Shown here in pieces: positions 14,233-61,435 of a stretch of DNA of 64,000 bases. Below the pieces are notes generated by a model. The model was not told where the DNA came from. It saw nothing but the letters and a program-made list of their open reading frames with translations, and made no database searches. Numbering within the stretch: the stretch's first letter is position 1; each line of letters opens with the position of its first letter. Source of the stretch: Desmodus rotundus (Eukaryota; Chordata; Mammalia; Chiroptera; Phyllostomidae); contig NC_071395.1 in the NCBI RefSeq assembly GCF_022682495.2, positions 59,039,242-59,103,241 of the forward strand. The letters are read 5' to 3'. The position numbers were made by a program, and so were the translations under genes.

Positions 14233-14238
14233 TGGTTG
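14233..14238. repeat. 6-bp target-site duplication, left (ERV 14239-19330)
   Basis: TGGTTG precedes the element's first bases TGATGCAG. The same hexamer follows the element at 19331-19336. Confidence 0.85.
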
Positions 14239-14783
14239 TGATGCAGATCTCGGCCCACAGGATCTGCTGTTGTGGTCACAATATACAAATACACACGGAC
14301 TACAGAAATCCTGTGGAGGAAAAGGGACGGTGCGGCCACTCTCTCAAGAGGAGAGCGTGTGGACCCTTGCCTTGACAGGCTTTTATTGTTTTTCTAGACC
14401 CCTTACATCAAAGGTGGTCCTCATAGGTTTGTTTTGGGTGGTTATCTTTTGCAGACAACAAAGGAGAGGATGTCACTGAATACATCAAAGAAGGATATTT
14501 GCAATGTAAAAGGAGAAATGGTCGAAAAACAGGCTGTGTTCCATACCTGGAAGGTCTAGCTCAGATTTGGGGAAGATAAAGATGCTCAGTAAACATTTGC
14601 TGCCTCAGGGTGAGGGAGTTTTAGCAAGAGCAAGTCTCATAGCAGTCTAGGTACAATGCAGGCCTGATTTCCCACTGGAGAACCTATCCATGGACGTGGG
14701 TCCTGTCAGCCAATCTCACTCCCCACTGGCTTTTCTGAGTGGGGGCTGAGCCACATTTCCCACGCTTGGAACAGTTCCCCACA
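14239..14783 (-). repeat. LTR, left copy (545 bp)
   Basis: On the minus strand this runs from TGTGGGGAACTG (14783) to CTGCATCA (14239). The poly-A signal AATAAA is at 14387-14382. A polypurine tract abuts the U3 side. It is highly similar to the inverted right copy at 18796-19330, so the pair is of similar age. Confidence 0.85.
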
Positions 14784-14799
14784 TCTCCCCCCTTGTTTT
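14784..14799 (-). other. Polypurine tract next to the left LTR
   Basis: The minus-strand AAACAAGGGGGGAGA directly precedes the LTR's TGTGGGG. This is the expected plus-strand primer site and fixes the U3 boundary and polarity. Confidence 0.8.
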
Positions 14800-15170
14800 T
14801 AGTTAGGACTGCTATAGATCCCACAAAGCTTGCTACTTGCTGGTCTCTCACACGACCCTGGGAAAATAATTTGCAAATGCAGTGGAGTACACAGAGCACT
14901 ATTATAATCAGTAAGCAACCGGAGGTTCCAAAGACCCATATTCTGGATTAAGTTCATCAAACAAGTTTTTTGGGTTTAGCCAGTCGAGATTATGATTGAG
15001 GGTTTGAAAAACCTCTTGCTTAATCAAGCATTGAATGTCCTGCAGCTGCTGATGCAATTCTAGCTGCAATTTAAATTGGTAGAAAAAGTCCCTCTAGGTG
15101 ATGCTGAATATCACTCCAGGAGTACTGGATGGAATTGCACTTCAGGGTGGGTGATATACAGCTTGGAGAA
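14800..15170 (-). pseudogene. ERV env TM (transmembrane subunit) remnant
   Basis: The minus strand reads a broken transmembrane-subunit ectodomain (WSDIQHHLEG near 15100, then DIQCLIKQEVF and LNHNLDWLNP), followed by a hydrophobic segment (around 14905-14870) and a short tail close to the polypurine tract. It resembles betaretrovirus-like Env tails and contains stops and at least one frame change. The surface subunit is missing. In a virus this protein would drive membrane fusion; this copy cannot be functional. Confidence 0.65.
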
Positions 15171-15340
15171 TCCTGGATCAGAAGAGTCCAGTAGGGTGGA
15201 GGTGGGTCGCTGCCAGGGAAGCCTTTTCTCATATGGCTTCAACCTCTTCAGTGCAGCTCTAAAGGTCCATCTGGAGAGAAAAACACAAGCATACCCTCTT
15301 CCCCAAGTTAATAGTGCAACTGGGCCTTCCCATTTTCCTT
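15171..15340 (-). pseudogene. ERV pol integrase C-terminal remnant (left of HAL1)
   Basis: The minus strand reads WEGPVALLTWGRGYACVF, which looks like the C-terminal beta-barrel of a betaretrovirus-type integrase. It continues across the HAL1 insertion at 17303-17420. It is followed within about 150 nt by the TM remnant, so most of env was deleted. Class assignment is moderate confidence. Confidence 0.5.
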
Positions 15341-17302
15341 CCCCTAACGGGTCTTTGTCTTTTTGTTTTTTTAAATATATTTATTGATTATACTATTACA
15401 CTTGTCCCATTTCCCGCCCTCCTCACTCCACTCCATCCTGCCCACCCTCTCCCTCCCACATTCCCCCCTATAGTTCATGTCCATGGGTCATACTTATAAG
15501 TACTTTGGCTTCTACATTTCCTACACTATTCTTACCCTCCCCCTGTCTATTTTCCACCTATCATCTATGCTACTTATTCTCTGTACCTTTCCCCCCACTC
15601 CTCCTCCCACTCCCCTATTGACAACCCTCCATGTGATCTCCATCACTATGGTTCTGTTCCTGTTCTAGTTGTTTGCCTAGTTTGCTCTTGTTTTTGTTTT
15701 AGGTGTGGTCGTTAATAACTGTGAGTTTGCTGTCATTTTTACTGTTCCTATTTTTTACCTTGTTTTTCTTAGGTAATTCCCTTTAACATTTCATATAATA
15801 AGGGCTTGGTGATGATGGACTTCTTTAACTTGACCTTATCTGAGAAGCACTTTATCTTCCCTTCCATTCTAAATGATGGCTTTGCTGGATACAGTAATCT
15901 TGGATGTAGGCCCTTGCCTTTCATGACTTGGAATACTTCTTGCCAGTCCTTTCTTGCCTGTAAGGTCTCTTTGGAGAAATCAGCTGACAGTCTTATGGGA
16001 ACTCCTTTGTAGGTAACTATCTCCTTTTCTCTTGCTGCTTCTAAGATTCTCTCCTGTTTAATCTTAGGTAATGTAATTATGATGTGCCTTGGTGTGTTCC
16101 TCCTTGGGTCCAGCTTCTTTGGGACTCTCTGAGCTTCCTGGACTTCCTGGAAGTCTATTTCCTTTGCCAGATGAGGGAAGTTCTCCTTCATTATTTGTTC
16201 AAATAAGTTTTCAATTTTTTGTTCTTCCTCTTCTCCTTCTGGCACCCCTATAATTTGGATGTTGGAACATTTCAAGATGTCCTGGAGGTTCCTAAGCCTC
16301 TCCTCATTTTTCCGAATTCTTGTTTCTTCATTGTTTTCTGGTTGGATGTTTCTTTCTTCCTTCTGGTCCACACCGTTGATTTGGGCCCCAGTTTCCTTCG
16401 CATCACTATTGGTTCCCTGTACATTTTCCTTTGTTTCTCTTAGCATAGGCTTCATTTTTTTCATCTGGTTTTCAAACAGATTCAACCAATTCTGTGAGCG
16501 TCTTGATAACCAGTGTTTTGAACTGTGCATCTGATAGGTTGGCTATCTCTTCCTCGCTTAGTTGTATTTTTTCTGGAGCTTTGATTTGTTCTTTCATTTA
16601 GGCTTTTTTTTTTTTTTCCTTCTCGGTGCATCTGTTAGGTAGTAAGGGGCGGAGCCTTAGGTGTTCCCCAGGGGGCGGGGGGTGGGGGTAATGCTGGTTG
16701 CTGTGCTGTGATGCTGTATGTGGGGGAGGGGCCGAGAGGGAGCAATGGCGCCCGCTCCACTCTCCACTGGCTTTCAGTCTTTCACTCTGCTACCCACAAT
16801 CAAACTGGCCCCCTCTGGTGCTGGTTCCCGAGTGGGTGGTCTTGTGCACGCCCTAGGCCCCTGTGGGTCTCTCCAACGACCTCTCCTGTGAGGCTGGGAG
16901 TCTCTCCTGCTGCCGCCCCAACCCCCATAGGTGTTTTCAATCAGAGGTTTGAGGCTTTATTTCCCTGCGCTGGAGCCCTGGGTTGCGTGGTGTGCTTTGT
17001 TCCCCACCATTTGTCCGGTTTATCTGTGTGCAAATGTGGGGCCGCAGGGCCTGCTAGTGGTCAGACTGCCTACCCCGTTTGTCCCACACTCCACCAGTCT
17101 TGGTCCCACCACAGCAACTCGAGTCCTCTCCACCCCGGCTGCCCCTCTCCGCCCCTCCCACTGGTCTGGATGAATGTTTATTTTTTATTTCCTTGGTGTT
17201 GGACTTCCTTGCTGTTCGATTTTCTGTCAGTTCTGGTTGTGCAATGAGGCGCAGTGTGTCTACCTACGCCGCCATCTTGGTTCTCCCCTAATGGGTCTTT
17301 GT
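15341..17302 (-). mobile_element. HAL1-like (half-L1) element with 18-bp target duplication
   Basis: CCCCTAACGGGTCTTTGT (15341-15358) and CCCCTAATGGGTCTTTGT (17285-17302) flank the element. On the minus strand it holds a 5' UTR (17284-16600, starting near a CAAGATGGCGGCGTAGG motif), an L1-type ORF1, a 3' UTR (15768-15375) and an A-rich tail, with no ORF2. Half-L1s are known non-autonomous LINEs that must use L1 ORF2p supplied in trans. The insertion lies in the ERV pol remnant, so it is younger than that ERV. Confidence 0.85.
15769..16597 (-). pseudogene. HAL1-like ORF1, one frameshift
   Basis: Translation starts at 16597 (MKEQIKAPEKIQLSEEEIAN), shifts frame near 16530-16480, and then stays open for about 250 residues to 15769. 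The RRM motif IIGVPEGEEEEQKIENLFEQ and the C-terminal block YKGVPIRLSADFSKE are visible. The protein family is L1 ORF1p, an RNA-binding trimer. It is clearly diverged from the L1 ORF1 at 9893 (for example LSADFSKE against LATDFSME), so the element belongs to a separate lineage. Confidence 0.8.
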
Positions 17303-17705
17303 ATAAGACCAAGGGGTGTGGGACTGCAGGCCCATTTTGCCCAAGGTGTTTGTCTATGGGTGACTTTAAATTATCATCACAATTCAAAAAATTGTACGTA
17401 TTCATTGCCAGCATGGTTAAAATCCAGGGAGGTAGTGAGTAACTTCTGTTTACCCAATTATTTGAGGTTGCAAACCTCTGGGGTTAGCACAGAGGGCAGG
17501 GTACTGTGCATTCCCCAGAGTGAGGAGGTCCCTGCCCCAGGAATTGAGTAGGGTGGGAAGTAAGGCTGAATTCATCTAACTTGCCCTTTTAGAACAAAAC
17601 AAGAGACTACACACCTTTCCAGGGTTGAGAAATGTCCCCATTCTAGTTATAGAAATGTAAATGTTATAGAAATCCCTTTTTCAAAAACTAAGCACATTGG
17701 GGGTC
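17303..17705 (-). pseudogene. ERV pol remnant, right of HAL1
   Basis: The first 120 nt continue the integrase-like reading (HPLVLYKDPLG next to the target duplication). Further right the frame is lost and I cannot assign domains. Confidence 0.4.
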
Positions 17706-18795
17706 TCCCCTTGGAGATGTGCAGTCTGCTGCTAGGCGCCCGAGGAGGCTGGGTGCTGCTTGGAACCCCCACCTGGGGCAGCCCGGCAACTCGAGATCAT
17801 GCTGGCGCTGGGCACAGGGAAAGGAGGCGAGAGGACCAATGTCTCCTCCACCCCGGCCTGTCCTTGGCAGAAAAACCTGGCCCTGATGCGCTGGGAGTGT
17901 GCACACACTGACACCTCAGCTGTGCTGTGAGCTTGTGCACACCTGCGCCCCTGCTGAGCTCACCGGGGAGTGCATGTTGCTCGCTGCAGCTGGAGCGAAC
18001 TGCAGAAAGGGCCTAGCTGGCGGGCCTCAGCCCATTCCTCTTTTTGTCTGAGCTTTTCCCGACTATGAGGCTGCTGCACCCTGCTTTTCCCCATATTACA
18101 AATGTAAAGATCCCTTATCTGGGAGACATCCAGCAGCCTTAAAAAGCTGCTGAATTAGCAGAAAACATTGCTCCTGTTCCTTAGAGAGCCTGTTCCCCAT
18201 GGTAGAGGATTCGTAGAAACCTTTAAAGAAAAGTTTTTAACAAATACAAGAACCTTTTCTGAAATTCGTCCCACCGCAAATGTGTCAATTATAAAAGCAG
18301 TCTGTTTTGCTTTTTACTCTGCCTACTCCTTTAAGTCTTACTTCTCGCTAGTGAGGAGAGTGTAGTGGGTCCAAATGTGCTGTTGGTGAAAGACGGTCAG
18401 GGAGAGGGGCACCGGACTTTCCGAGTACCCTAACCCCGCTTATGGGTCTTGGGTCCTCCCCAAGCATTTAGAACCATGAGGATGGGGCTCGAAGTGCCAG
18501 GTGACCAGCCTTTATATCGTGCTTCCCCGGATGAGCCAGAAGTTAGATGAGGTGATGTTGGAGGTCCCTATAAGGCCCCTGCACGTCTTGGGAATTGATC
18601 CCAGACACCCTCGCAAGGTTCTGAGTCACGTGGGAACACCCAATTTCTTGGCCCGAGGGGAGGAAGTGCCTTTTGTCTTCAGAGCTTGGTGAATGCCAAA
18701 AGCTCTCGTACAAAACCTGTGACTAACACTAAATTCTTCTGGAAAGTGATCTTCGGAGTCCAGTGGAAACCAAAACACTCATTCCCTATCCACTT
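17706..18795. other. Unassigned sequence inside the inverted-LTR ERV
   Basis: About 1.1 kb without recognisable retroviral domains. 17706-18010 is GC-rich with scattered CpG and looks more like host exon or promoter DNA; 18040-18360 is AT-rich; 18370-18795 has a plus-strand frame that I do not recognise. It ends abruptly where the right LTR begins. Candidates are a captured host segment or decayed gag/pol. Confidence 0.5.
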
Positions 18796-19330
18796 TTCCA
18801 AGCGTGGGAAATGTGGCTCAGCCCCCACTCAGAAAAGCCAGTGGGGAGCGAGGTTGGAGGGCAGGACCCATGTCCATGGATAGGTTCTACAGTGGGAAAT
18901 CAGGCCTGCATTGTACCTAGACTGCTGTGAGACTTGCTCTTTCTAAAACTCCCTCACCCTGAATTGAGGCAGCAAATGTTTACTGAGTATCTTCATCTTC
19001 CCCAAATCTGAGCTAGACCTTCCAGGTATAGAGCATAGCCATTTAGACCATTTCTCCTTTTACATTGCAAATATCCTTCTTTGATATATTCAGTGACATC
19101 CTCTCCTTTGTTGTCTGCAAAAGATAACCACCCAAAACAAACCTATGAGGACCACCTTTGATGTAAGGGGTCTAGAAAAACAATAAAAGCCTGTCAAGGC
19201 AAGGGTGCACACGCTCTCCTCTTGAGAGAGTGGCCGCACCGTCCCTTTTCCTCCACAGGATTTCTGTAGTCCGTGTGTATTTGTATATTGCAGCCACAAC
19301 AGCAGATCCTGCGGGCCCAGACCTGCGTCA
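18796..19330 (+). repeat. LTR, right copy, lacking the first ~12 bp of U3
   Basis: Plus-strand homologue of the left LTR from TTCCAAGCGTGGG to the terminal CTGCGTCA. The poly-A signal AATAAA is at 19182-19187. The opening TGTGGGGAACTG and the polypurine tract found at the left copy are absent, so the internal junction lies at the very start of U3. Confidence 0.8.
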
Positions 19331-19336
19331 TGGTTG
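19331..19336. repeat. 6-bp target-site duplication, right
   Basis: TGGTTG, identical to 14233-14238, follows the terminal CA of the right LTR. Confidence 0.85.
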
Positions 19337-45240: not shown

Positions 45241-46880
45241 AGTGACAGCAGATCATTGGAAGTGTCGAACAGGATGCCTCAGGTCCAACGGGGTCAACAT
45301 CTGACATCAGCAGAGGCAGATCCATAAAGAAAAAAAAAACAGTGGTGAATACAAGAGACTACCAATACAAAAGCTACTGTGGTCTCCTTCATGATTTGCA
45401 GTATTTTCTTTTCTGCATAGCTTTATAATATTCATTTCTTGTCCAGTGAATTTGTATATAATAAGTCACTAGATTTTATACTATAGTGTATTTCAATCCA
45501 CACTCTCCCCCCGCCCCCGCCCCCAGCTTAGCCCATCTTACCTTCCTCTTTCCTTGCAATATTCTCATTTCAAGTTTGGTTTTCTCTCTAGCTACAGCTT
45601 GTTTCCATTCCACACTCTTACTATTTATCCCCTGTTCAGACACTCAAAACGAAGTTTCTTGTCAAGGGTCATTTCACATCCTTTTGCCTAGCTATTAAAA
45701 TACCCATGTTCTCTCTACACCTGTAACAACCTTTGCTAATTGGTTGTGGGTAGGGTAGTTGTTGTTGCATTGTTTTTTCAAGGTTATCTCTAGAGTGTCA
45801 CCAATTCTGTATTTCAAATAACAAATTTTGCAGGACACCTCTCCTACTCTTTTTTTTTTTTGACTCAAATTTTAATTATGCTGTCTTAGCCTGTTTTTTT
45901 CTTTTTCTTTTTTTGTCTTTCTTCTATTTCTCTTTCATCCTGCCCTTTTATTTTTCTTTATTCTTTTTTCTTTTCCTTTACATCCCAAATTTTAATTTTC
46001 CCCTCACTTAGTCTAGTTTTTGTCCCTCACTCTTAGTATTCCCTCTCCCTCTATCATTACAAAATCACTTCCCAGTCTCTAAACATCTCTTAGACTTTTC
46101 TTTGTTTCTTTTTTCCCTATTATCCCCATACCACCTATATTAATTTTAGCTCATTGATTATTGATAGTACTCTGGTGGATCTTTCTCTCCAATTTGGCTC
46201 CTACATTTTTATTAATTATTTAATATATTTCTTTCCTTTTTTCTTTCTCTCACTTTATTTTATTTTATCCTATTTTAATTTTCATTTGAACTTAATACTA
46301 TATGCTTCCCTTCTCATATTCCATTCCACACACTTCATTCCCTTTCTTTATTCATGAGGTAAGCCCTACCGTCTCCCCTTCTGTTCCTCCAATCCCAACT
46401 TTTATTATTAGTGCTCTTCCCTCTACCGTCTCAAAATCATTTCTCTTTCAGTAGGTCATCTCATATCTACTCTTTTTTCTTATAATAGTCTTAATCTCGT
46501 TACACCCTTATTAATACTGGTTAATTTGCTATTGATAGTGGAATTCCTGGGGGGAGCTATATTTGTGGGTGACGGTTTGTTTCTTGGGCTCTGTGGTTTT
46601 GTTCAGGCAGCGTCTCCACAACAGCACACAAGATGTGGCGGGTAAAGTGACCCTCAGACAACCAGCAACAGGGAAGGATCCACGAAAGAATGACCCAACA
46701 AAAGTCAAAACCCAAATATGTATGAAAAACAACCATAAAAGACATAAAAGACATCCTAAGAACATCAAGTTCACGTGATTAAGGACCCTGCACCACCGTA
46801 TCTCACAGGACTTCCACCATAGAAATTAACACCACAAAGTCAGAACATCAAAAGAGATCAGTTTAAAAAACAGAAACAGG
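45241..46880 (+). mobile_element. Old L1 5' UTR, second part
   Basis: This continues the old L1 5' UTR. 45890-46500 is pyrimidine-rich and mirrors 19560-20570. 46560-46860 aligns with the empty site of the inverted-LTR ERV (GAATGACCCAACAAAAGTC near 46688; AACAACCATAAAAGACATAA near 46729). Confidence 0.7.
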
Positions 46881-58440: not shown

Positions 58441-59482
58441 ACTTAACTTTAAAAATTATTTTATTGTTGTTCAAGTACAGTTCTCTCCATTTACTCCCCA
58501 CCACTTCCCCCCCACCCCCAACCCCAGCCATCCCCACCTCCCTCCCTTGATTACAGACCCACTTGGTTTTGTCTGTGTCCTTTATAGTTGTTGCTGAAAA
58601 ACCTTCCCATCTTCCCCGCCCCCCCCTCACCCCGCCAATTATCCCCTCTCACCTTCCCTCTGGTTACTGTCAGATTGTTCTTAATTTCAATGTCTCTGGT
58701 TATATTTTGCTTGCTTGTTTGTTGTGTTGATTAGGTCCCAGTTAAAGGTGAGATCATATGGTATTTGTCTTTCACCACCTGGCTTATTTCACTTAGCATA
58801 ATACTCTCCAGTTCCATTCATGCTTTTGCAAAGGATAGGAGCTCCTTATTTCTTTCTGCTGCATAGCATTTCATTGTGTAAATGTACCATAGTTTTTTGA
58901 CCCATTCATTTACTGATGGGCACTTAGGTTGCTTCCAGCACTTGGCTATTGTAAGTTGTGCTGCTATGAACATTGGGGTGCATAGGTTCTTATGCATTGG
59001 TGTTTCAGGGTTCTAAGGATATAATCCTAGCTGTGAAATTGCCAGGTCAAAGGGCAGTTCCATTTTTAGTTTTCTGAGGAAATTCCATACTGTTTTCCAC
59101 AGTGGCTGCATCAGTCTACATTCCCACCAACAGTGCAGCATTCCCTTTTCTCCACATCCTCTCCAACACTTGTTTGTTGATATGTTTAAGATGGCCATTC
59201 TCACTGGTGTGAAGTGCTATCTCATTGTGGTTTTAATTTGAATCTCTCTGGTGGCTAGTGATACTAAGCATCTTTTCATATGTCTCTGGGCCCTCTGTAT
59301 GTCCTCCTTGCAAAGTGTCATTTCATGTCTTTTGCCCATGTTTTAATTGGTTTTTTTGTCTTCCTGGAGAGGAGTCATGAGAATACTTTATATATTTTGG
59401 AGATCAAACCCTTGTGTGAGGTATCATTGGCAAATATGTTTTCCCATATTGTTGGTTCTTTTTTCATTTTGATGCTGTTTTT
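58441..59482 (-). mobile_element. L1 3' UTR and ORF2 C-terminus, minus strand
   Basis: A C-rich 3' UTR (58475-58660) and a broken ORF2 C-terminal part ([17 protein letters not shown] at about 59013-59065 in minus reading). It ends at the HAL1-like element. Confidence 0.8.
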
Positions 59483-61435
59483 TAAATATATTTATTGATT
59501 GTGCTATTACAGTTGTCCCATTTCCCCCCTTCACTCTACTCCATCCTGCCCACCCTCTCCCTCCCACATTTCCCCCTGTAGTTCATGTCCATGGGTTATA
59601 AGTTCTTTGACTTCTACATTTCCTATACTATTCTTATCCTCCCCCTGTCTATTTTCTACCTACCATTTATGATACTTATTCTCTGTATCTTTACCCCCTC
59701 TCTCCCCCTCCCACTCCCCTGTTGATAACCTTCCATATGATCTCCATTTCTGTGATTCTGTTCTTGTTCTAGGTGTTTGTTTAGTTTTGTTTTTGTTTTA
59801 GATGTGGTTATTAATAACTGTGAGTTTGTTGTCATTTTACTGTTTGTATTTTTGATCTTCTTTAGAAGATAATTCCCTTTATCATTTCATATAATAAGGG
59901 CTTGGTGATGACGAACTCCTTTAACTTGACCTTATCTGAGAAGCACTTTATCTGCCCTTCCATTCTAAATGATAGTTTTGCTGGATAGAGTAATCTTGGA
60001 TGTAAGTCCTTGCCTTTCAGGACTTTGAATACTTCTTGCCAGTCCCTTCTTGCCTGCAAGGTCTCTTTTGAGAAATCAGCTGACAGTCTAATGGGCACTC
60101 ATTTGTAGGTAACTATCTCTTTTCTCTTGCTGCTTCTAAGATTCTCTCCTTACCTTTCATCTTGGGTAATGTAATTATGATGTGCCTTGGTGTGTTCCTC
60201 CTTGGGTCCAACTTCTTTGGGATTCTCTGGGCTTCTTGGACTTCCTGGAAGTCTATTTCCTTTAACAGATTAGGGAAGTTCTCCTTCATTATGTTTTCAA
60301 ATAAGTTTTCAATTTTTTGTTCTTCCTCTTCTCCTTCTGGTACCCCTATGATTTGGATGTTGGACGTTTCAAGATGTCCTGGAGGTTCCTAAGCCTCTCC
60401 TCATTTTTTCTGAATTCTTGTTTCTTCATTCTGTTCTGGTTAAATGTTTATTTCTTCCTTCTGTTCCAAACTGATGATTTGAGTTCCGATATCCTTCCTG
60501 CCACTGTTGGTTCTGTGTACATTTTCCTTTATTTCTCTTAGCATAGCCTTCATTTCTTCACCTAATTTGCAACCATATTCAACCCTTTCTGTGAGCATCC
60601 TGATTACCAGTTCTTTGCACTGTGCATCTGATAGGTTGGCTACCTCTTCATTGCTTATTTGTATTTTTTTCTGGTGCTTTGATTTGTTCTTTCATTTAGG
60701 CTTTTTTTTTTTTTTTTTCCTTCTCTGTGCATCTGTTAGGTAGTAAGGGGCGGAGCCTTAGGTGTTCACCAGGGTGGGGCAACCCACATTGCTTCCTTGT
60801 GATACTGTATGTGGGGGAGTGATATGAGGGGGAACAATGCAGCTTGCTCTGCTATCTGCTGGTTTTCAGTCACTTCCCCTGCTACCCACAATCAAATTGG
60901 GCCCTTCTGGTGCTGATTCCTGGGTGGGTGGGCTTGTGTACATTATAGGGCCCTGTGGATCTCTTCAAGAACTCTCCTGTGAGGCTGGGAGTTTCTCTGG
61001 CTATCACCTCAACCCCCACATGTGTTTTCAGTCAGAGATTTGAGGCTTTATTTCCCTGTGCTGGAACTCTGGGTTGAGCAGTGTGTCTTACTCCCAGTTG
61101 TTCCTCCCGTTTATCTGCACAAATGTGGGACTGCCAGTCCACAATCTGCTGTCTCACCGGGTCCACCAGTCACTGACTTGGCCGCAAGCTGCAGCCTTGC
61201 CCACTCTGGTCCTCCAGCCACCGTCTTGTGGGGAGTCCTCTCTGCCTGGCTGCACATCTCCGCTCCTCCTACGGATCTGGATGAATGGTTCTTCTTTAGC
61301 TCCTTGGTTGTTGGACTTCCATATAGTTCAATTTTCTGACAGTTCTGGTTGTTTTTTGTTTTTAAGTGTGTTGTTGTACTTCTTTTGGTTGTACAAGGAG
61401 CCACAGTGTGTCCACCTACCTCTCCATCTTGGCCA
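59483..61435 (-). mobile_element. HAL1-like element, minus strand
   Basis: The same structure as at 15359-17284: 3' UTR (59485-59860), ORF1 (about 60695-59862), 5' UTR to a CAAGATGGAGAGGTAGG start at 61435, no ORF2. Flanking L1 sequences are ORF2 but not contiguous: about 570 bp of the matching region is missing between them, and I find no target duplication. Confidence 0.75.
59862..60695 (-). pseudogene. HAL1-like ORF1, decayed
   Basis: In minus reading, the C-terminal block PIRLSADFSKETLQARRDWQ (about 60095-60036) and the RRM region (EEEEQKIENLFE around 60325-60290) are recognisable. Start near 60695. Several stops and frameshifts. Confidence 0.7.

What the first reader, a model, noticed from the sequence alone, without database searches (positions are those of the whole stretch)
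14233..19336. Endogenous retrovirus with inverted LTRs, both U5 ends outward, bounded by one 6-bp target duplication
Seen: TGGTTG at 14233-14238 and 19331-19336; element ends TGATGCAG and CTGCGTCA; left LTR in minus and right LTR in plus orientation, shown by poly-A signals at 14387-14382 and 19182-19187. Deleting the element and one hexamer rebuilds an old L1 5' UTR that aligns with 46,640-46,840. Known: retroviral integrase normally joins one U3 end and one U5 end. Inference: either a palindromic DNA with two U5 ends was integrated (for example after autointegration or recombination between two cDNAs), or an inversion occurred with a breakpoint exactly at the provirus edge. The right LTR lacks only the first ~12 bp of U3, so the rearrangement joint is at the LTR edge.
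Basis: partly seen in the sequence, partly recalled or inferred. Interest (0 to 1): 0.82.

Follow-up and report, generated by a model that had tools for sequence, protein, structure and literature searches.

The report
Retrovirus integrated by two identical ends
An old defective retrovirus copy in this genome was inserted using the same kind of end (U5) on both sides instead of one U3 and one U5 end, and at least two other copies in the same genome show the same oddity, so integration by two U5 ends happens in nature and can be studied from these fossils.

Summary
A defective betaretrovirus-like provirus (14239-19330) has LTRs in opposite orientations, both U5 ends outward, flanked by a perfect 6-bp duplication (TGGTTG). 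The LTRs are 508/534 identical and sister sequences among 30 compared (100/99 support). Gag start and integrase end both read on the minus strand, so only the right (5') LTR is reversed.

The host genome explains the joint. Ordinary copies have 5' LTR, PBS, roughly 600 bp more leader (616 in L032), then the leader seen here. This copy lacks the PBS and that stretch. Its leader stops at ACTTTTCC and continues as U3 does after ACTGTTCC (7 of 8 alike, TTCC exact). That fits a minus-strand cDNA that never reached the PBS and switched onto the 5' end of a minus strand, copying U3-R-U5 out to the end. Later inversion and autointegration fit poorly.

Of 53 other leader-bearing copies looked at (three not assessable), two more (L034, L047) have U5 at both ends, each with a perfect 6-bp duplication (GATGCT, CTTCCC), through joints near the R/U5 border. 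U5/U5 integration is thus recurrent in this family. Template switching versus end joining of cDNAs cannot be settled from sequence.

The parts
14233..14238 (.). target site duplication, left copy (TGGTTG)
14239..14783 (-). left LTR, complete (U3-R-U5 on minus strand), the 3' LTR of the provirus; U5 end outward
   Evidence: ends shared with other copies
14382..14387 (-). AATAAA in left LTR
14784..14800 (-). polypurine tract next to U3 of the 3' LTR
   Evidence: a like tract is at the 3' LTR in L055, the 3' part of L047
14801..15340 (-). 3' part of body: env end (assigned by eye) and end of the integrase C-terminal domain (piece 15111-15344)
   Evidence: PF00552, E 5.3e-7; solved integrase chains 3jca, 5d7u, 7usf; start of this stretch shared with L045, L046, L052, whole stretch with L055
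15359..17284 (-). later L1-type insertion (5' UTR, ORF1, tail; no room for ORF2) with its own 18-bp TSD (15341-15358 and 17285-17302, 1 mismatch)
   Evidence: (PF02994, PF17490)
17303..17483 (-). integrase region upstream of the L1 insertion
   Evidence: by eye; 90-95% alike in L045, L046, L052, L055
17480..18200 (-). gag remnant; start codon at 18200-18198
   Evidence: (5 unnamed proteins, 88-94% identical over 57-74% of the 46-aa piece); the name gag is my reading of position and start
18201..18799 (-). 3' part of the leader; native leader homology ends at 18799; PBS and the PBS-side leader are missing
18792..18799 (.). joint: ACTTTTCC (as in leader) versus ACTGTTCC (U3 nt 9-16); TTCC shared exactly
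18792..19330 (+). right LTR, reversed relative to a normal provirus; lacks U3 nt 1-8 at least; U5 end outward
19182..19187 (+). AATAAA in right LTR
19331..19336 (.). target site duplication, right copy (TGGTTG)

Best explanation
A non-autonomous betaretrovirus-like RNA was reverse transcribed, with enzymes presumably from a helper virus. Inferred: minus-strand synthesis ran from the 3' LTR through the body but stopped in the leader several hundred nt short of the PBS, so the normal second strand transfer could not happen. Its 3' end (..ACTTTTCC) paired with the U3 edge (ACTGTTCC) at the 5' end of a minus strand, its own or a sister's, next to the PPT, and copied U3-R-U5 to the end. The resulting linear DNA had a genuine U5 terminus at each end. 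Shown by the sequence: both termini are exact U5 ...CA ends flanked by one 6-bp duplication, as expected of concerted joining by integrase. L034 and L047 fit the same scheme with the switch inside R/U5. Neither LTR reads into the genes, so the copy could not make genomic RNA from its own LTR (inferred).
For: Exact ends and perfect TSD. The arms are sisters among 30 LTRs, 100/99, with similar private changes, 11 left, 14 right, 1 undecided, as for one event. Of 40 scored matches to a query across the joint (2300 first-look candidates), only this locus spans it; 23 others match the leader side, none past 18799, and 16 the LTR side. Seven-of-eight microhomology. In normal copies the 5' LTR and PBS lie further upstream, 616 bp in L032. 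Two more U5/U5 integrants with perfect TSDs: L034 GATGCT and L047 with L055 CTTCCC. In L034 the arms meet at a palindrome (GGCCACTCTCC..GAGAGAGGGGCC); ordinary LTRs carry a near-palindrome there. In all three the extra arm is no longer than one LTR (539, 109, 118 nt), as expected if the template was the 5' end of a minus strand. Precedent for the last step: MMTV integrase preferentially catalysed concerted joining of two viral DNA ends in vitro; the oligonucleotide table seen lists MMTV U5 ends (PMC3790719, passages).
Against: No intermediate can be seen. TTCC microhomology also fits cellular end joining. In L047 the left arm is no closer to its own U5 copies (79/86 to each) than to other LTRs (best of 48: L009, 83/86); in L034 it is 83/86 and 77/86 to its own, best of 48 others 82/86. 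So a same-molecule origin is not shown for these two. The foldback hairpin in this copy's U5 is not exceptionally stable (z -1.26; 16 of 200 shuffles fold as well). L047 has a 45-nt spacer with a second short antisense stretch that a single switch does not explain. No further case among 30 more leader loci.
Confidence: 0.62

Rival explanations
1. Two cDNAs, or a cDNA and an LTR fragment, were joined by microhomology-mediated end joining in the cell, and the joined DNA with two U5 ends was then integrated.
For: TTCC microhomology and small loss at the U3 edge; short arms in L034 and L047 are not demonstrably from the same molecule.
Against: Needs a free LTR-sized duplex with a U5 end, or heavy resection; all three extra arms are one LTR or less.
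Confidence: 0.22
2. Integrase joined the U5 ends of two different cDNAs to one target, and the two free distal ends were then resected and sealed by the host.
For: In vitro, MMTV integrase joins two separate viral-end duplexes concertedly (PMC3790719, passages). This route also gives exact U5 ends and a 6-bp TSD.
Against: It predicts extra arms of any length; the three seen are 539, 109 and 118 nt. The arms of this copy are sisters.
Confidence: 0.1
3. A normal provirus integrated and later suffered an inversion of its right LTR.
For: Inversions occur, and deletions could have removed the PBS and leader.
Against: Needs one breakpoint exactly at the LTR/TSD border, a second at the U5/PBS border, and loss of the PBS with several hundred bp of leader, and the same outer precision again at L034 and L047 with other target sites.
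Confidence: 0.03
4. Autointegration: a viral end attacked the viral DNA itself.
For: Autointegration makes internally rearranged circles (PMC3148978 passages; PMC4751563 passages).
Against: The joint should start with the processed U3 end, but at least U3 nt 1-8 are missing. The products described in those passages are circles, not linear DNA with two free U5 ends.
Confidence: 0.02
5. Assembly error.
For: Inverted repeats are hard to assemble; raw reads were not available.
Against: Perfect TSDs at three separate loci, a 113.9-Mb contig, and arms differing by 26 substitutions.
Confidence: 0.01

Closest known systems
Betaretrovirus-like (class II) endogenous retroviruses; MMTV integrase among the nearest solved chains (that 3jca, 5d7u and 7usf are MMTV is recalled; the table says Integrase or Pr160)
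   Same: Integrase C-terminal domain, 6-bp TSD, PPT next to U3, and in relatives a PBS two bases after the U5 CA.
   Different: The 5' LTR is reversed and U5 is at both termini; the body is a gag start-integrase end-env end remnant.
Autointegration products of MLV, RSV, HIV-1 and Ty1 (Shoemaker 1980/1981, seen only in reference lists and review passages)
   Same: Internal rearrangement of cDNA that can leave LTRs inverted.
   Different: Those are unintegrated circles with a viral end joined internally; here a linear DNA with two free U5 ends was integrated.
DIRS-1-type retrotransposons (PMC5633606, passages)
   Same: Inverted LTRs.
   Different: They use a tyrosine recombinase and circular intermediates; here integrase sequence and a 6-bp TSD are present and inversion is exceptional in the family.
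HIV-1 proviruses with asymmetric LTRs or inversions (PMC9278108, passages)
   Same: Defective proviruses with unequal LTRs or internal inversions (that these are reverse-transcription accidents is my inference).
   Different: The passages seen describe asymmetric LTRs, 3'-LTR deletions and genome inversions, not U5 at both termini.
In vitro concerted integration by MMTV integrase (PMC3790719, passages)
   Same: Two viral ends joined together; the MMTV oligonucleotides listed are U5 ends.
   Different: Purified enzyme and oligonucleotides, not a provirus in a germ line.

Membership tests
Betaretrovirus-like endogenous retrovirus | Betaretroviral integrase | tested here: met
   PF00552 on the piece 15111-15380(-); on the piece 15111-15344(-) integrase chains 3jca E 2.6e-4, 5d7u, 7usf (their MMTV origin is recalled).
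Betaretrovirus-like endogenous retrovirus | 6-bp target duplication | tested here: met
   This copy and L034, L047 exact; 23 of 28 other LTR loci at least 5/6.
Betaretrovirus-like endogenous retrovirus | PBS next to 5' LTR | tested here: not met
   Absent here; a PBS-like stretch, judged by position and resemblance to a recalled tRNA-Lys complement, follows U5 in L032, L040, L047, L052.
Betaretrovirus-like endogenous retrovirus | Two LTRs in direct orientation | tested here: not met
   Inverted. By sequence it belongs to the family; by structure it is a rearranged copy, not an ordinary member.
DIRS-like element | Inverted terminal repeats | tested here: met
DIRS-like element | Tyrosine recombinase | tested here: inconclusive
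   Not among the Pfam matches of the 20 pieces scanned; no dedicated search was made.
DIRS-like element | Insertion by recombinase from a circle, not integrase (recalled: no TSD) | tested here: not met
   6-bp TSD.
DNA transposon with terminal inverted repeats | Transposase, and a family in which copies are bounded by the inverted repeat | tested here: not met
   The repeat is an LTR with AATAAA and PPT; 28 of 28 other repeat loci fetched lack an inverted partner within the fetched 3.3 kb. Transposase was not searched for beyond Pfam on 20 pieces.
Autointegrant | Joint starts at the processed U3 or U5 end | tested here: not met
   U3 nt 1-8 missing at the joint.

The most novel reading that the evidence does not exclude
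U5/U5 integration is a regular by-product of this family, about 4% of its leader-bearing copies (2 of 53 besides this one, 3 of the 53 not assessable). It would be promoted by a long leader that often stops minus-strand synthesis before the PBS and by a palindrome at the R/U5 border, and its integrase uses two U5 ends as readily as a U3/U5 pair in the germ line.
Probability: 0.3. Interest if true: 0.75.

Novelty: new variant of a known kind. Interest (0 to 1): 0.62.

Why it matters
Proviruses are taken to carry one U3 and one U5 terminus. Three germ-line integrations at different sites with two U5 termini and perfect target duplications indicate that a betaretroviral integrase accepted matched U5 ends in vivo. 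They also record what happens when second strand transfer fails. The signature (U5 outward at both ends, intact TSD, joint near the 5' end) can be searched for in any genome and would give a rate for this error. LTR-finding programs that expect direct repeats should miss such copies (inference).

Tried and rejected
Rejected readings: chance inverted repeat; two unrelated solo LTRs (shared TSD and colinear body); DNA transposon; DIRS element; exact flip of the 5' LTR (PBS and PBS-side leader gone); autointegration; larger palindrome (the flanks are not palindromic, score 8 against shuffle maximum 11, and homology does not continue inward, 9 against 15).

Led nowhere: Rfam (0 matches); PDB searches of the gag, env and upstream integrase pieces (0 matches); viral contigs (no relatives); PBS scan with recalled tRNA complements (best 12/18 in the leader, reached in 149 of 300 shuffles); genome-wide exact pattern for the U5 palindrome (12 forward and 8 reverse hits at 17 distinct places; one is L034, the other 16 were fetched, of which 13 are ordinary LTRs and 3 gave no LTR match; the pattern cannot see L047); junction search with L034 (40 of 865 candidates scored, no second copy spanning all 101 bases; three partial matches fetched are ordinary LTRs). 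Paper searches (all ten allowed) listed no provirus with two U5 ends by title or abstract; two searches showed 15 of 306 and 15 of 103 papers, and the library lacks most subscription papers.

Results against or limiting my reading: none of 30 further leader-bearing loci showed a U5-out 5' end. Of these 30, 27 gave LTR matches, all in the normal direction though some only partial, and three gave none (L072, L076, L078); follow-up pieces showed PBS-side leader in L072 and L076, and in L078 a leader cut at nt 68 with no LTR match in the 620 bases beyond. L048 and L052 have other 5' defects. Two pairs of the 30 look like duplicates (L060/L061, L064/L065). The 54 leader loci are the best matches, not a random sample; one search had 267 first-look candidates, 40 scored. 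Gene conversion between the arms cannot be excluded (longest identical run 120, permutation p 0.034), so LTR divergence is a minimum age.

Full report
What is there. The element spans 14239-19330 and is flanked by TGGTTG on both sides. Its arms are LTRs in opposite orientation: the left is complete (545 bp, minus strand), the right is plus strand and starts in U3 at nt 9 or later. Both outer ends are the U5 end (..CTGCATCA and ..CTGCGTCA). Because the LTR begins TG and ends CA in both readings, polarity was fixed by AATAAA in each arm, by a purine tract beside the U3 edge of the left arm only, and by coding remnants.

Body. The integrase C-terminal piece reads on the minus strand (PF00552; solved integrase chains 3jca, 5d7u and 7usf, MMTV by recall), and so does a gag start (5 unnamed database proteins, 88-94% identical). 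The provirus therefore runs right to left, the left LTR is its 3' LTR, and the right (5') LTR is the one reversed. The gag-integrase-env-end body is not private damage: L045, L046 and L052, and L047 with L055, have the same order, so this looks like a non-autonomous family. An L1-type insertion with its own 18-bp duplication came later.

Family. The host genome (2.12 Gb, unnamed) gave 3766 first-look candidates for a 289-base R/U5 query, 40 scored; 30 loci were cut, two of them this element's own arms. The other 28 share the LTR, and 23 of 28 have a 6-bp duplication matching at least 5/6 at the exact ends. In a tree of 30 LTR sequences the two arms are sisters, 100/99 (the program notes that bootstraps had not settled). 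Of the columns where the arms differ, 11 changes fall on the left, 14 on the right and 1 is undecided, as expected if both arms date from one event. K2P between them is 0.051.

The joint. A 200-bp query centred on the joint had 2300 first-look candidates, 40 scored. Only this locus matched completely. Of the 39 others, 23 cover only the leader side, none beyond window 18799, and 16 cover only the LTR side. The leader of relatives reads ..TATCCACTTTTCC then TTATG.. (L032), U3 of the left LTR reads ..GAACTGTTCC then AAGCG.., and here ..TATCCACTTTTCC is followed by AAGCG... In L032 the 5' LTR ends 616 bp further upstream and is followed by TC and a PBS-like stretch (TGGTGCCCAGGAACAGGG, also in L040). 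In the other copies whose LTR match reaches the U5 end this distance is mostly 576-644 bp, and 389-390 in L053 and L054. This copy therefore lost the PBS and several hundred bp of leader, and passes into U3 within a 7-of-8 match.

Other copies with two U5 ends. Loci were chosen by leader similarity, not by structure. Among L032-L054 (23 loci), 19 have a normal U3 5' edge and four do not. L034 starts with reversed U5 (nt 545 to 436), continues as U5 (439 to 545), PBS-like stretch, leader to nt 219, then R-U5 (381 to 545), bounded by GATGCT twice. L047 starts with reversed U5 (545 to 428), a 45-nt spacer, U5 (459 to 545), PBS-like stretch, leader and body, and ends in a normal PPT and 3' LTR (L055), bounded by CTTCCC twice. 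L048 is deleted and L052 begins near R. Thirty more leader loci (L056-L085, from 40 scored of 267 candidates; the rest were this locus and nine already seen) gave no further case: 27 have LTR matches, all in the normal direction, and three have none. Total: 2 of 53 besides this one, with three of the 53 not assessable.

Mechanism. Shown: exact U5 ends, 6-bp duplications, joints away from the outer ends, extra arms no longer than one LTR. Inferred: the growing minus strand switched onto the 5' end of a minus strand (its own or a sister's) and copied it out to the U5 terminus. In this copy the switch came from the leader, beside the PPT. In L034 and L047 it came from within R/U5, where ordinary LTRs carry a near-palindrome. 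Integrase then joined two U5 ends. MMTV integrase catalyses concerted joining of two viral ends in vitro, with U5 oligonucleotides listed for it (PMC3790719, passages), and MMTV makes 6-bp duplications (PMC3790719; PMC9410886, passages). End joining of two cDNAs before integration, or joining of U5 ends from two cDNAs with later repair, remain open; same-molecule origin is not shown for L034 and L047.

Known or new. Inverted LTRs are standard in DIRS-1 (PMC5633606, passages), and autointegration can give circles with inverted LTRs (PMC3148978 and PMC4751563, passages). I found no description of proviruses with U5 at both termini in ten searches of an open-access library, judged from listings and a few passages, which is not proof of absence. 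I rate it a new variant of a known kind.

Noticed in passing
window 15359-17284 and 59478-61352: Two 1.9-kb L1-type copies, 83% alike over the same extent, with 5' UTR, ORF1 and tail but no room for ORF2 (only the first was scanned for ORF1); looks like a non-autonomous half-L1 family.
   Followed up: partly
L021 and L026 (LTR loci): LTRs whose U5 CA is followed by TC, then CGGCGC or TGGCGC, and ten more bases ending in TCA before what looks like the target duplication (L021 AAACAC exact, L026 5 of 6, read by eye), as if a few PBS bases and a second U5 tip had been integrated.
   Followed up: partly
L052, about 2207 in sense orientation: A 5' LTR that begins near the start of R (LTR nt 377) with no U3 match.
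   Followed up: no
L048, 2721-3009 in sense orientation: U3 nt 21-141 joined directly to the leader, with the rest of the LTR and the PBS missing.
   Followed up: no
L034, about 1720 in sense orientation: The leader at nt 219 is joined to R-U5 (from nt 381), as if strong-stop DNA had jumped to the leader instead of the 3' R.
   Followed up: partly
genome C3:192165874, C4:176540343, C6:57919715 (L093, L095, L098): LTRs with perfect palindromic arms at the R/U5 border (GGCCACTCTC..GAGAGTGGCC) in otherwise ordinary orientation.
   Followed up: partly
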